Shown: piece after piece, positions 30,430 through 38,430 of the stretch | How positions within the stretch are numbered: position 1 is the stretch's first letter | How the letters are laid out: each line of letters begins with the position of its first letter | NCBI GenBank assembly: GCA_029976005.1 | Contig: JARKOQ010000234.1 | Coordinates: 1-41,592 of the forward strand | Direction of reading: 5' to 3' | Length of the DNA: 41,592 nucleotides | Source of the DNA: Aggregatilineales bacterium | Lineage (GTDB): Bacteria > Chloroflexota > Anaerolineae > Aggregatilineales > Ch27 | The notes under the pieces: model-generated | Database searches by the model: none | Seen by the model: only the letters and a program-made list of their open reading frames with translations | Told to the model about the DNA's origin: nothing | Made by a program: the position numbers and the translations under genes

Positions 30430-32847
30430 TTACAGCGGCGGGCACTCGGTCAGGGCAACCACCAACTCGCTCAGGATCCAGCCCTGCACCTGCCCGCTGC
30501 CAATAGTGTATGTCACCTGGAACCAGATCCGGTTGTCGTCGCCGCGTGTCTGCTGGTTCACGTTCATCGCCGTGCCCTGGAGCGCCACTCCCAACACGCG
30601 GCTCGTCTGGACGTTTGGCTCGCTGCGGACGTTTACCCCACCCTCGCGCTGGACGAAGACGCGGCACAGCACAGGCGGCGGCGGAGTCACGCTGGCCGTC
30701 ATTGTCATCGACGGCGTCAGCGTAATGGTCGGAGACAGCGTGGGTGACGGTGTATCCGACGCCGTGGGGGTCATGCTGGGTGTGTAGGTTTCCGTCGGGG
30801 TATAGGTATGGGTCGGCGTGTTGGTATGGGTTGGCGTGAGCGACGGCGTGACCGTCCAGCTTGGCGTTACGGTCGGGGAAGGCGTCACCGTCTCGGTCGC
30901 GGTCGCGGTTGCCGTCGGCGTGAAGCTCGGCGTAAAGGTCAGTGTCGGCGTGAAGGTCGCCGTCTCCGTCGGAGGATACAGGATCGCCATCACGGTGGGC
31001 TCCCAGCGCGTCCGGGTTACCATCAGGATGAACAGCCCGATCAGCGCCAGCCCGGCCACGAGCGCGCCCTGGCGCATCAGACGCCCCTGGCGCAGCCCGC
31101 GAACGGCCGTCTCCAGCCGGAGCAAATCGGTCCGCCGGCCCAGGATACGGAACGGCTCTTCCTTGAGCATGCCGATCCAGCGCTCCGCCTCGGCGGCATC
31201 GCGCTGGGCAAGCGCGTTTTCCGCCCGGTCGATGTAGCGCTCCATCAGGTCGTTGACCACGTGGCGGTAGCGCGCATCCTGCGAGAAGCGGCCCAGCGAG
31301 GCCAGCATCCCGCGCGCCTGGGAGAGTTCCGCGTCCACATTCTGGGCGATCAGCGAGCCGGCCCGCTCGATGATGTTGCGCGCTTCCTGCATCTGGGCCT
31401 CGTTCTGGCGCGCCTCCTGAAGCTGCCCGGTCAGGGATTGGTCGCTGGGGTCCAGCCGGACGGCGGCCTCCAGCGCGCGCACAGCCTCCGTGGTCAGACG
31501 CAGGCGTTCCTCCAGCGTCATGGCGCTTTCGGTGCGGGCCACCAGGGCGCGCGACTGATCGTTGAGCTGCGACTTGACGGCATGCAGCCGGCTGTTGGCG
31601 TCCTGCATCAGCGCCGCGAGGCGCGTGCTGCCCGGCAAATTCTGGCGCAGCACCGTCAGCGCATTGATGATCTGCTGAAGCTCCTCGGCGCGCTCGTTCA
31701 ACGTGCCGCTTAAGCCGGCCAGTTGGGCCTGGGCGCGCTCCGCCTGGTGGAGCACCTGGCGGGCCTTGTCCAGCCGTTCCTGGGCCAGCGGATCGGAGGC
31801 AACCACCCGCAGCGCCCCCTCGTACTTGTGGATGGCTTCCTGCCAGTCGTCGTTCGACATCAGCCGGTCGCCATCGCTCAGCATCTCGCGCGACAGGGCC
31901 AGGTCCTGGATCGCCAGCAGCGCCTGCTCGGCATCCTTCCAGGAGGGAATACCCGCCGCCTGGGCGATGTCCCGTGCCTCGCGGTACAGGCGCTCGGCTT
32001 CGTCATAGTTACCCGCGCGGGCCAGCGAATTGGCCCGGTTGTAGGCCACCCGCGCGTCGAACGGGATGCGATGATCGGGCACCACTCCCCGCAGAATATT
32101 CTCCTCGGCCTTCTGCCGGTATTCGAGCGCTGTGGCATGTTCGGCCTGCCGCTCCAGGATGCGATTCGCCAGATCGACCGTCTGCTTATAGTCGCCGGCG
32201 TAGTAGACCTGGGTCATCTGGGCCGCCAGAGCGGACAGATCGACTCCGGGATCGGCGGGTACGGCCTCCGCACGCGCGGCCTCTCGCGGTCTGGGCGGCT
32301 CAGGACGAGTCACTGCCGGGGCGGGCGGTTCCACCACGGGCGGCATCACCACGTCCGGCTCTGGCCTGGCGGGCATGGCGGCATATTCAGCGGGCGGCAG
32401 CGCCTGCCGGATGCCGTAGCGCCGGAACAGCTCCATCACCTTCATGCGCAGCGCACCGCTGCTCGCGGCGGCCTTGGCCAGCAGCGCGATCGTCTCGGCA
32501 TTGTCCGGATCGCGATCCAGCGCATCGGCCAGGATATCGACCGCGTCGTCGATATCGTCCTCGTCCCCGGCCAGTTCGATCCGGATGCGGGCGCGGCGCA
32601 GCAGCCCTCGGACGGCGCTGTCGTCGGCGGGCGGCGCCTGGGGCGCGGACGCGGTCTCGGCCGCGACGTGCTGCGCCAGCAGGTCAAACAGAGTGCGGGC
32701 CTGCGCCTCCAACGGCGTATTGCGGGCCGCGGCCAGCAGGCGGCGCGCCTCCGCCTCCAGCTCGGTTAACAGAGTCGACGCGACGGTGCGGGGCAGCGCT
32801 TCGATTCGGGACTGAAGGTCCGCGAGTTGTTGGGTCAGGTCAGTCAT
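30430..32847 (-). CDS. TPR-rich single-pass membrane protein with Thr/Pro stalk and outer SH3-like domain
   Basis: This 805-residue protein (start ATG 32847, with AGGAG about 17 bases upstream) has a large cytoplasmic part with several TPR-like helices, for example DIDDAVDILADALDRDPDNAET near residue 100, YYAGDYKQTVDLANRILERQAEHATAL near 215, and YDEAERLYREARDIA near 285. A coiled, helix-rich stretch follows. One TM helix lies at about 587-610 (GALVAGLALIGLFILMV). A Thr/Pro/Ser-rich stalk of about 95 residues leads to a C-terminal domain with VNVRSEPNVQTSRVLG typical of bacterial SH3 (SH3b) domains, thought to bind peptidoglycan or other polymers. It is the third gene of the atypical kinase operon and probably serves as its scaffold. 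No enzymatic motif is seen. Confidence 0.87.
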   Translation of the reverse strand: MTDLTQQLADLQSRIEALPRTVASTLLTELEAEARRLLAAARNTPLEAQARTLFDLLAQHVAAETASAPQAPPADDSAVRGLLRRARIRIELAGDEDDIDDAVDILADALDRDPDNAETIALLAKAAASSGALRMKVMELFRRYGIRQALPPAEYAAMPARPEPDVVMPPVVEPPAPAVTRPEPPRPREAARAEAVPADPGVDLSALAAQMTQVYYAGDYKQTVDLANRILERQAEHATALEYRQKAEENILRGVVPDHRIPFDARVAYNRANSLARAGNYDEAERLYREARDIAQAAGIPSWKDAEQALLAIQDLALSREMLSDGDRLMSNDDWQEAIHKYEGALRVVASDPLAQERLDKARQVLHQAERAQAQLAGLSGTLNERAEELQQIINALTVLRQNLPGSTRLAALMQDANSRLHAVKSQLNDQSRALVARTESAMTLEERLRLTTEAVRALEAAVRLDPSDQSLTGQLQEARQNEAQMQEARNIIERAGSLIAQNVDAELSQARGMLASLGRFSQDARYRHVVNDLMERYIDRAENALAQRDAAEAERWIGMLKEEPFRILGRRTDLLRLETAVRGLRQGRLMRQGALVAGLALIGLFILMVTRTRWEPTVMAILYPPTETATFTPTLTFTPSFTPTATATATETVTPSPTVTPSWTVTPSLTPTHTNTPTHTYTPTETYTPSMTPTASDTPSPTLSPTITLTPSMTMTASVTPPPPVLCRVFVQREGGVNVRSEPNVQTSRVLGVALQGTAMNVNQQTRGDDNRIWFQVTYTIGSGQVQGWILSELVVALTECPPL
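30690..30976 (-). repeat. Low-complexity Thr/Pro-rich stalk-coding repeat
   Basis: The DNA encodes irregular TPT/TPS-type repeats for about 95 residues within the TPR-SH3 protein. Codon use is skewed to ACC/ACG/CCG and the period is irregular. A similar stretch lies at about 34690-34960 in the 1435-residue kinase protein and a shorter one at 10030-10170. Such stalks are a frequent feature of Chloroflexota surface proteins and may be O-glycosylated. Confidence 0.7.
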
Positions 32848-32887
32848 GCAGGGCCTTGGCTCCTGGAATATCCTTCCGGATTCCCAC

Positions 32888-34027
32888 TCAGGGAATGACA
32901 CGTCGCGCGAGCATGGCGTTGATGGCGCTGAGCAAGCGGCGTAATTCCTGCTCGGTATCCTCGTTAATCCCGTCCTCGATCGCCGCTTCCATCAACAGGT
33001 CTCGCGCCTCGTGAATCGCTTCCTGTCCGGCGCGCAGCTTGCGCAGGCCGGCGCGAATCTGGCCGCGAATTTCCCGCAGCCCGTCTTCCGCCGGGCGATG
33101 CGGAAAATCCCATCCAAGCTGGCGAGCCGCCGCCTCCAACTGCTCGGTGAAGGCTTCGATGCTCTTGTAACCGCGCGCCGCGCCGCGCTGCAAGACGTCC
33201 TGAAGCGCCTTGCTCAGCGTCGGCTCGACCCCGAAATCCAGCGTGCTGATATCCGCGTACCGCTTCTGCATCGCGTCCGGCGAGGCGGGCTGTGACGCCA
33301 GCACCCCCTGGCGCGGAGACAGGCCAGTGAACAGCGGGTAGAGAATCCCCACGCACAGGTGGTGGATATCGGTCTGGAACAACTGGGCCGCCTCGCTGCT
33401 GGTCCCCTCGAACTGGCGCGAGCTGTTCCAGTCGATGATGCGCAGGATTTCGCCGTCCCAGTAGACGTGCTCCAGCTTGTGATCCAGGTAGACGATTCCC
33501 TGCTGGTGGGCCAGCTTGAGCACCGCCGCCAGTTGCAGCGCCAGGTCGATCCCCTCTTCGGTGGGTAGCCGCCAGCGCACTCCGGCCGTGTTCGGCTTCA
33601 TGAGGTAAAGCAGATTCGCGGCGCGCGGCAGCACTTCCAGGGCCAGATACGGACGCCAGCGCCGTTCCGCATACACGTTGGCATCACGAATGAACCCCAG
33701 CACGTCGGCCCGGTAGGAGACGACCTCGCCCATCACCGGCCGTTCGTCGCGGGCCTCGAGATACCCGCAGTCCAGAATCTGCACGACGGATGGGCTTCCG
33801 GCCATCTTCATCAGCAGACTGGCTTCGTTGGCGAAGGCCCGGTATTCCCACGGCGGCTCGTCGGTATAGGCCATGTGCTCCGGCCGCAGCACCTTGAACG
33901 CCACGGTCCGGCCCGTCCGCCGGTCATACGCCTCGACCACGCGGGCATAGTGCCCCAGCGCAAACGTATCGTTGTAGTTACCGACGCGGTAGATCGCGTC
34001 CAACGTCAGAGATTGCACAAAGCTCAT
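32888..34027 (-). CDS. Atypical protein kinase-like protein (DWN/His variant)
   Basis: The 379-residue protein has the outline of a protein kinase with changed motifs. The ATP-anchoring lysine is K45 (VAFKVL). The catalytic loop reads IVYLDHKLEHVYWD, keeping D182 and K184 but with His H187 where the metal-binding Asn is expected. The DFG motif reads D199-W200-N201. The Gly-rich loop is degenerate (ALGHYARVVEAYD). Residues 300-379 form a helical tail without known domain. It is neither an obvious pseudokinase nor a standard Hanks kinase, and the IDW motif recalls aminoglycoside phosphotransferase-like folds. It lies 40 bases after the 1435-residue kinase protein gene and 40 bases before the TPR-SH3 gene. 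The same His substitution occurs in the upstream kinase, which implies a shared lineage or mechanism. Confidence 0.8.
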   Translation of the reverse strand: MSFVQSLTLDAIYRVGNYNDTFALGHYARVVEAYDRRTGRTVAFKVLRPEHMAYTDEPPWEYRAFANEASLLMKMAGSPSVVQILDCGYLEARDERPVMGEVVSYRADVLGFIRDANVYAERRWRPYLALEVLPRAANLLYLMKPNTAGVRWRLPTEEGIDLALQLAAVLKLAHQQGIVYLDHKLEHVYWDGEILRIIDWNSSRQFEGTSSEAAQLFQTDIHHLCVGILYPLFTGLSPRQGVLASQPASPDAMQKRYADISTLDFGVEPTLSKALQDVLQRGAARGYKSIEAFTEQLEAAARQLGWDFPHRPAEDGLREIRGQIRAGLRKLRAGQEAIHEARDLLMEAAIEDGINEDTEQELRRLLSAINAMLARRVIP

Positions 34028-38375: not shown

Positions 38376-38402
38376 AAGGGGCTATCTCCTGGGCCGTCTA
38401 CT

Positions 38403-38430
38403 ATTGTACGCACCCCCCCCGACCCGTCAA
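38403..38430 (-). promoter_or_regulatory. Promoter of the atypical kinase operon with a poly-G spacer
   Basis: On the minus strand TTGACG (38430-38425) and TACAAT (38408-38403) are 16 bases apart. Half of that spacer is an uninterrupted run of eight G (38420-38413). Gain or loss of a G by slippage would change the spacer length. The ATG of the kinase gene is 28 bases downstream of the -10 box. Confidence 0.6.

What the first reader, a model, noticed from the sequence alone, without database searches (positions are those of the whole stretch)
30430..38430. Three-gene membrane signalling module with paired atypical kinases
Three adjacent genes with 40-base gaps encode (1) an atypical kinase with about 800 residues of helical repeats, a TM helix, a Thr/Pro stalk and an outer domain, (2) a soluble atypical kinase, and (3) a TPR protein with a TM helix, a Thr/Pro stalk and an outer SH3-like domain. 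Both kinases share the same unusual changes: His for the metal-binding Asn of the catalytic loop (H151 and H187) and DWG/DWN for DFG. Two matching outer stalk proteins plus two matched kinases suggest a transmembrane sensor complex. I know of no described system with this layout.
Basis: partly seen in the sequence, partly recalled or inferred. Interest (0 to 1): 0.75.

Follow-up and report, generated by a model that had tools for sequence, protein, structure and literature searches.

The report
Paired atypical kinases with membrane partner
Three neighbouring genes, kept together in many Chloroflexota bacteria and with the first two fused into one in some, encode two unusual kinases and a predicted membrane protein that likely work together as one switch reporting on the cell surface, a set for which our paper searches found no description.

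Summary
The three genes (K1 34068-38375, K2 32888-34027, T 30430-32847, minus strand, 40-base gaps) are real and form a conserved module. All three occur in 130 of 154 genomes of the window's order, none in 12, part of the set in 12. K1-K2-T order recurs in other families of the class at 24-38% K2 identity, and K1 and K2 are one ~1000-residue protein, with T next door, in the Anaerolinea group, cultured A. thermolimosa included. His for the metal-binding Asn holds in 60 of 61 distinct K1 and 79 of 79 K2. The sugar kinase WaaP has the same His and a shortened activation loop (PMC6147952, passages), so the kinases are probably active. K1's outer domain is predicted as a concanavalin-like fold. 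Scattered K2 often faces a PP2C phosphatase gene (43 of 58). Best reading: a membrane-tethered two-kinase complex reporting on the envelope. The module is well supported; activity, ligand and substrate are untested.

The parts
34068..38375 (-). K1: atypical kinase, 1435 aa: kinase domain, long arm, membrane helix, T/P stalk, outer domain
   Evidence: ORF; Pkinase 44.4 bits; found in 139 of 154 order genomes
37923..37940 (-). K1 catalytic loop D146-V-D-A-K-H151 (His for metal-binding Asn; opposite charges at +2/+4)
   Evidence: 61 distinct genes: H151 60, Gln 1; opposite charges 60
37872..37883 (-). K1 D165-W-G-N168 in place of DFG
   Evidence: D165, W166, N168 61 of 61, G167 60 of 61
35046..35138 (-). 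K1 predicted membrane helix (residues 1080-1110)
   Evidence: hydropathy
34686..34970 (-). K1 Thr/Pro/Ser-rich stalk
   Evidence: 54% T+P+S
34071..34673 (-). K1 outer domain (residues 1235-1435), predicted concanavalin-like jelly roll
32888..34027 (-). K2: atypical kinase without membrane helix, 379 aa
   Evidence: ORF; Pkinase 39.7 bits; no helix; 137 of 154 order genomes; model pLDDT 89.5
33467..33484 (-). K2 catalytic loop D182-H-K-L-E-H187
   Evidence: D182, K184, H187 invariant in 46 sequences
30430..32847 (-). T: TPR protein with membrane helix, T/P stalk and outer SH3-like domain, 805 aa
   Evidence: ORF; TPR and SH3_3; 139 of 154 order genomes (four of these weak)
31009..31080 (-). T predicted membrane helix (residues 590-613)
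   Evidence: hydropathy
30673..30975 (-). T Thr/Pro/Ser-rich stalk
   Evidence: 69% T+P+S
30460..30642 (-). T outer SH3_3 domain (residues 736-796)
   Evidence: PF08239 28.5 bits, cut-off 27
38403..38430 (-). promoter-like site TTGACG-16-TACAAT upstream of K1
   Evidence: only such match in 30200-38600 (0.9 expected by chance, so weak by itself)

Best explanation
K1, K2 and T form a gene module conserved across several families of one Chloroflexota class, and their proteins likely assemble into one membrane-tethered complex in which T, and in this lineage also K1, would report the state of the cell envelope to two kinases that are probably active. Shown: gene content, order, co-occurrence, the K1-K2 fusion, retention of the catalytic Lys, Glu and both Asp residues, and loss of the activation loop. 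Predicted: T spans the membrane and shows an SH3-like domain outside; K1's outer domain has a fold common among glycan-binding proteins. Inferred: K1 and K2 touch, because they are one protein in the Anaerolinea group; His151 and His187 hold the second magnesium, as His168 does in WaaP; with no activation loop to phosphorylate, the kinases are switched not by loop phosphorylation but by the contact between T, K1's arm and K2, as the TPR part is proposed to do in PknG; and they phosphorylate a docked partner, or each other, which a PP2C phosphatase undoes. Ligand and substrate are unknown.
For: All three genes in 130 of 154 order genomes, none in 12. In family f2 they are scattered (K1-K2 adjacent in 0 of 94), yet 91 of 98 genomes keep all three. 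K1-K2-T order in other families of the class and contiguous in 37 of 79 named loci; K1-K2 fused with T next in 16 more, plus one fused at a contig end. K1 and K2 each form one branch in a tree of 55 kinase domains. Catalytic Lys, Glu and DFG-Asp in 61 of 61 distinct K1 (the HRD-Asp was part of the pattern that located the loop) and all four in 46 of 46 K2. DFG-Asp to alphaF-Asp 22 and 21 residues, against 38-68 in the 16 ordinary kinases of the assembly where it was read. WaaP precedent for His and short loop (passages). T has a membrane helix in 50 of 55 loci. K1 outer jelly roll. PP2C head-to-head with K2 in 43 of 58 f2 genomes; in a matched sample 12 of 20, against 8 of 20 and 8 of 19 for the best neighbours of K1 and T. 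PknG-GlnX-GlnH as a worked example (passages).
Against: No activity, binding or interaction was measured. Without the activation loop and APE motif neither kinase has the usual platform for peptide substrates. K1 in Anaerolineaceae has no membrane helix, so the K1 outer domain is not essential to the system. One K1 (G847) has Gln for His. G538 (only T) and G529 (K1 and T, no K2) are 94% complete genomes with part of the set. The PP2C pairing is only somewhat commoner than other kept neighbours, is found in 1 of 34 genomes of genus g269, and in the printed operon genomes the phosphatase lies on another contig. A near-universal gene set within one order is partly shared ancestry.
Confidence: 0.5

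Rival explanations
1. K1 and K2 are non-catalytic: they may bind ATP as a switch but serve as a scaffold at the membrane, as EssB/YukC and the MviN pseudokinase do.
For: No activation loop or APE motif; His for Asn also occurs in the inactive STRAD-alpha (His200, passages); membrane pseudokinases with attenuated activation loops exist (EssB, passages).
Against: STRAD-alpha lost the Lys, HRD-Asp and whole DFG as well; K1 and K2 keep them, so the review's definition of a pseudokinase (loss of beta3-Lys, HRD-Asp or DFG-Asp) is not met. A PP2C gene facing K2 would have little use next to a dead kinase (inference).
Confidence: 0.28
2. K1 and/or K2 phosphorylate a small molecule, lipid or envelope glycan precursor, as WaaP does, and T and the outer domains place or monitor that product.
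For: Same His and short activation loop as the sugar kinase WaaP; outer domain with a fold common among glycan-binding proteins.
Against: No Pfam match to the Kdo/WaaP family at E 0.1; the closest listed folds are protein kinases, PknB first; among the neighbours examined no glycan-synthesis gene recurs; two kinases plus a TPR protein fit signalling better (inference).
Confidence: 0.15
3. Three unrelated neighbours without a joint task.
For: Genes are scattered in family f2.
Against: Joint retention after scattering (91 of 98), joint absence in 12 of 154, same order at 24-38% K2 identity, and fusion.
Confidence: 0.03

Closest known systems
PknG-GlnX-GlnH system of actinobacteria (PMC8546545, passages read)
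   Same: One operon with a cytosolic kinase, a transmembrane protein and an outside sensor part; TPR repeats proposed to carry the signal to the kinase
   Different: One kinase, not two; TPR is on the kinase, not on the membrane protein; no solute-binding lipoprotein here; that PknG keeps its activation loop and metal Asn is recalled, not tested
WaaP LPS heptose kinase (PMC6147952, passages read)
   Same: His replaces the metal-binding Asn and coordinates Mg; shortened activation loop; catalytic Lys, Glu and Asp kept
   Different: Single sugar kinase, no paired kinase or membrane partner in the passages seen; no Pfam Kdo match for K1/K2
PknB-type transmembrane Ser/Thr kinases
   Same: Among the best fold and sequence matches of K2; kinase inside and outer domain outside (recalled for PknB)
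   Different: PknB-type kinases have an activation loop and metal Asn (alignment to a staphylococcal kinase) and PASTA repeats (recalled); K1/K2 have none of these
EssB/YukC and MviN pseudokinases (PMC12599244, outline and passages)
   Same: Membrane-linked kinase-like domain; reduced activation loop in EssB/YukC and in the family that holds MviN
   Different: Catalytic motifs degraded there, kept here; no such Pfam match for K1, K2 or T at E 0.1
STRAD-alpha/LKB1/MO25 (PMC2686265, passages)
   Same: Two kinase-fold proteins with a helical-repeat partner; His for Asn in STRAD
   Different: Eukaryotic; STRAD lost Lys, Asp and DFG and keeps an activation loop; no membrane part in the passages seen

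Membership tests
Canonical bacterial Ser/Thr kinase (PknB type) | Protein kinase fold with catalytic Lys, Glu, HRD-Asp and DFG-Asp | tested here: met
Canonical bacterial Ser/Thr kinase (PknB type) | Activation loop with APE motif | tested here: not met
   22 and 21 residues from DFG-Asp to alphaF-Asp, no APE/SPE/PPE; ordinary kinases of the same assembly 38-68 in 16 read
Canonical bacterial Ser/Thr kinase (PknB type) | Metal-binding Asn in the catalytic loop | tested here: not met
   His in 60 of 61 distinct K1 and 79 of 79 K2 loci
Kdo/WaaP kinase family (PF06293) | Match to the family profile | tested here: not met
   No match at E 0.1
Kdo/WaaP kinase family (PF06293) | His for Asn and shortened activation loop (as in WaaP) | tested here: met
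   against PMC6147952
Kdo/WaaP kinase family (PF06293) | Phosphorylates LPS heptose | not testable with these tools
   needs an assay
Bacterial pseudokinases (as defined in PMC12599244) | Loss of beta3-Lys, HRD-Asp or DFG-Asp | tested here: not met
   all three kept; definition
PknG-GlnX-GlnH type sensor system | Kinase gene in one operon with a transmembrane protein gene | tested here: met
   T beside K2; same order in distant families; co-transcription itself not tested
PknG-GlnX-GlnH type sensor system | Solute-binding lipoprotein GlnH in the operon | tested here: not met
   no such domain in K1, K2 or T; genes outside the three were not searched for it

The most novel reading that the evidence does not exclude
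An obligate two-kinase receptor: K1 and K2 are unlike, activation-loop-free, His-metal kinases that work only as a pair, fused into one chain in some species, and are switched by a transmembrane TPR protein rather than by loop phosphorylation: a way of making a bacterial transmembrane kinase receptor not described in the papers we searched.
Probability: 0.35. Interest if true: 0.8.

Novelty: new variant of a known kind. Interest (0 to 1): 0.62.

Why it matters
How bacterial Ser/Thr kinases that lack an activation loop are switched, and whether kinases with His at the metal site act on proteins, are open questions (my judgement). This set offers natural comparisons in one system: separate and fused forms, forms with and without an outer domain on K1, in a near-universal gene set of one bacterial order and in a cultured species (Anaerolinea thermolimosa) whose single fused protein can be expressed. 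It would also give a first function to genes that, where a source names them, are called only 'serine/threonine protein kinase' or 'hypothetical protein'.

Tried and rejected
Considered and set aside: an anti-phage system (PADLOC matches of K1 and K2, to PD-T4-6, MkoA, mad6 and similar models, fall on the kinase domain; T has one weak match, E 0.005; no defence gene was sought further); T7SS EssB (no such Pfam match at E 0.1); neighbours as a functional clue: folC follows T in two loci of one genus, with a Lon gene after it in the one that was searched, and the 14 other neighbours given to Pfam or NCBIfam imply no common pathway. The PP2C lead, first seen in 9 of 20 lone-K2 loci (next family 4 of 20), was tested against the kept neighbours of scattered K1 and T and is only moderately stronger. 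A WaaP-like fold was not among the listed rows; absence from such a list is no evidence. The Foldseek list for the K1 outer domain includes receptor-binding domains of clostridial neurotoxins among many lectin-like folds; this is a common fold and was not followed. The tree cannot say whether K1 and K2 are sisters (unrooted, long branches). 'Not in print' rests on the listings (one search was about WaaP), in an open-licence library that lacks most subscription papers; only the listed titles and abstract starts were seen, apart from the four papers whose passages are cited.

Rows dropped or double. Before the counts: K1 matches of G403 and G479 and T matches of G420, G432, G444 and G547, whose places the tables did not print; the T ones are weak (E 2e-12 to 7e-11), and two of them (G432, G547) lie in genomes that I count as having none of the three. 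Three f96 genomes counted as not adjacent have K1 matches that stop 1.2-1.5 kb short; L141 shows K1 and K2 adjacent in one of them. The 65 K1 rows hold four genes twice; one search gives the 61 distinct ones, and the pattern that located the loop required Asn145, Asp146 and Trp154, so their constancy is partly by construction (no row of the 45 failed it; of 57 loci with K1 seven did: two have the loop with His, the other five are fragments without it). In one search, L176 and L177 are counted as separate although K2 shares a reading frame with the end of K1 there. The spacing was read in 16 of 23 kinases (five gave no spacing, two no motif). Of the five T without a helix, three are cut short and two (L144, L152) are full length.
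Full report
WHAT IS THERE. The minus strand carries K1 (38375-34068, 1435 aa), K2 (34027-32888, 379 aa) and T (32847-30430, 805 aa), separated by 40 and 40 bases. A promoter-like site lies just upstream of K1 (38430-38403; one found in the region, 0.9 expected by chance). Pfam gives a protein kinase domain in K1 and K2 and TPR plus SH3_3 in T. Each of K1 and T has one predicted membrane helix followed by a stalk rich in Thr, Pro and Ser. 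The assembly has 25 kinase-domain matches; K1 and K2 are the two weakest.

IS IT A MODULE. In the window's order K2 is found in 137 of 154 genomes, K1 in 139 and T in 139. From the printed places, 130 of 154 have all three, 12 have none (every genome searched of families f94, f95 and f97) and 12 have part (dropped rows are listed under Tried and rejected). K1 and K2 are adjacent in 16 of 17 genomes of f92, 4 of 4 of f1, 8 of 9 of f93, 3 of 10 of f96 and 0 of 94 of f2 (n = genomes with both placed). In f2 the genes are scattered: in the single-contig genome G492, K1 and K2 lie 1.8 Mb apart and K2 and T 72 kb apart; in most others they lie on different contigs, some of them short. Yet 91 of 98 f2 genomes keep all three. 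Two 94% complete genomes hold part of the set (G529: K1 and T; G538: T only).

BEYOND THE ORDER. A class-wide search with a K2 profile matched 46 of 396 genomes. Of the 11 matched genomes outside the order, ten have K1, K2 and T: side by side in seven genomes of f6 and f134, with a 5-kb insert between K1 and K2 in an eighth (G343), with K1 apparently running over two contigs in G726, and with K1 and K2 fused in G216; the eleventh, G574, has a lone remote relative with the ordinary Asn and no K1 or T match within the 19 kb read. A scan of named genomes found 173 relatives and kept 79 loci: K1-K2-T contiguous in 37, K1-K2 fused with T next in 16, fused at a contig end in 1, K1-K2 adjacent at a contig end in 2, K1 some 5 kb away in 1, K2-T at a contig start in 1, and K2 alone within the flanks held in 18 plus 3 more at a contig edge. 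Some loci are the same genomes as. The fused protein is about 1000 aa and includes cultured Anaerolinea thermolimosa (L184; taxonomy). Of the 79 record titles one is not Chloroflexota, 'Pleurocapsa minor' (L215), whose K2 and PP2C pair matches the f2 type. A phylum sample of 400 genomes gave 9 matches, none outside the class. G493 holds a second, diverged K1-K2 pair with a T-like gene of the same build.

THE KINASES. In 61 distinct K1 genes the catalytic Lys41, Glu62 and Asp165 are invariant, His151 is 60 of 61 (Gln in G847), and D-W-G-N is kept but for one Ala (Asp146 was part of the search pattern). In 46 K2 sequences down to 22% identity, Lys45, Glu68, Asp182, Lys184, His187, Asp199, Asn201 and Asp220 are invariant. 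His is present in 120 of 120 K2 proteins (114 by pattern, six read by eye) and 79 of 79 loci (68, 11 read). In K2 the residue after the DFG-Asp varies (55 L, 36 F, 19 W, 2 M of 112 read) and Asn replaces Gly in all 112. In K1 the positions +2 and +4 from the catalytic Asp carry opposite charges in 60 of 61 (36 D/K, 12 K/D, 11 K/E, 1 D/R; 1 K/G): the family swaps which side holds the Lys. Both kinases lack the activation loop: 22 and 21 residues from the DFG-Asp to the alphaF-Asp, and no APE-like motif, against 38-68 in the 16 ordinary kinases of the same assembly where it could be read; the profile alignment to a staphylococcal kinase shows the gap. In a tree of 55 domains K1, K2 and ordinary kinases each form one branch (100/96, 100/98, 100/99; unrooted).

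A PHOSPHATASE LINK. In f2, where K2 has left the cluster, a PP2C phosphatase gene (PF13672) stands head-to-head with K2 in 43 of 58 genomes with both placed, in 18 genera. Control: in samples of scattered K1 and T the most frequent neighbour recurs in 8 of 20 and 8 of 19, against 12 of 20 for K2-PP2C in the 20 genomes of the K1 sample (read off). So the link is suggestive, not decisive. PP2C matches at E 1e-50 were found in 99 of 154 genomes, and none of the 12 genomes without the module is among them; but most of genus g269 (33 of 34), which keeps the module, is not among them either.

MECHANISM. Best reading: a membrane-tethered heteromer. T passes a signal from outside through its TPR part to K1's arm and K2; the kinases, lacking a loop to be phosphorylated, are switched by contact, much as the TPR part of PknG is proposed to couple GlnX to the kinase (PMC8546545, passages). 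Shown: module, fusion, residue retention, loop loss. Inferred: contact, activity, switching, envelope signal. The scaffold reading (0.28) and the WaaP-like small-molecule reading (0.15) stay open.

NOVELTY. A review of bacterial pseudokinase families has no word beginning 'Chloroflex' and, in its outline and the passages seen, no family like this (PMC12599244). Five literature listings showed no description of this set. I file it as a new variant of transmembrane kinase signalling.

Noticed in passing
L215 (JAHHHY010000015.1, titled Pleurocapsa minor), K2 near 9980-11104: A cyanobacterial-titled record holds an f2-type Chloroflexota K2 with the head-to-head PP2C; the contig or bin is probably mislabelled or contaminated.
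   Followed up: partly
L135 (G493:C2:1-12000): A second, strongly diverged K1-K2 pair with a T-like gene of the same build, beside the scattered main copies in the same genome; about 22% K2 identity.
   Followed up: partly
L207 / G419 contig C1 near 4500-4800: K1 of a close relative is broken by a frame shift near its end (MAG; may be an assembly error).
   Followed up: no
L134 (G574:C1 near 4519138): A lone remote K2 relative with the ordinary Asn (DxKxxN) and DWN, which would fit His having arisen from Asn.
   Followed up: partly
L126 and L127 downstream of T: In one Anaerolineaceae genus T is followed by folC (both loci), with a Lon protease gene next in L127; L129 has genes of the same sizes there, not searched.
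   Followed up: partly
window 26588-30419, minus strand: Downstream of T lie genes that look like a xanthine-dehydrogenase-type oxidase (large and FAD subunits), by eye, not searched.
   Followed up: no
window 18642-19367, plus strand: A further, ordinary kinase domain lies in the same window (172 bits).
   Followed up: no
L221-L223, L225 and L239 near T in f2: A LytR-CpsA-Psr-like gene (named by eye) lies within a few genes of T in 5 of 19 f2 loci.
   Followed up: no
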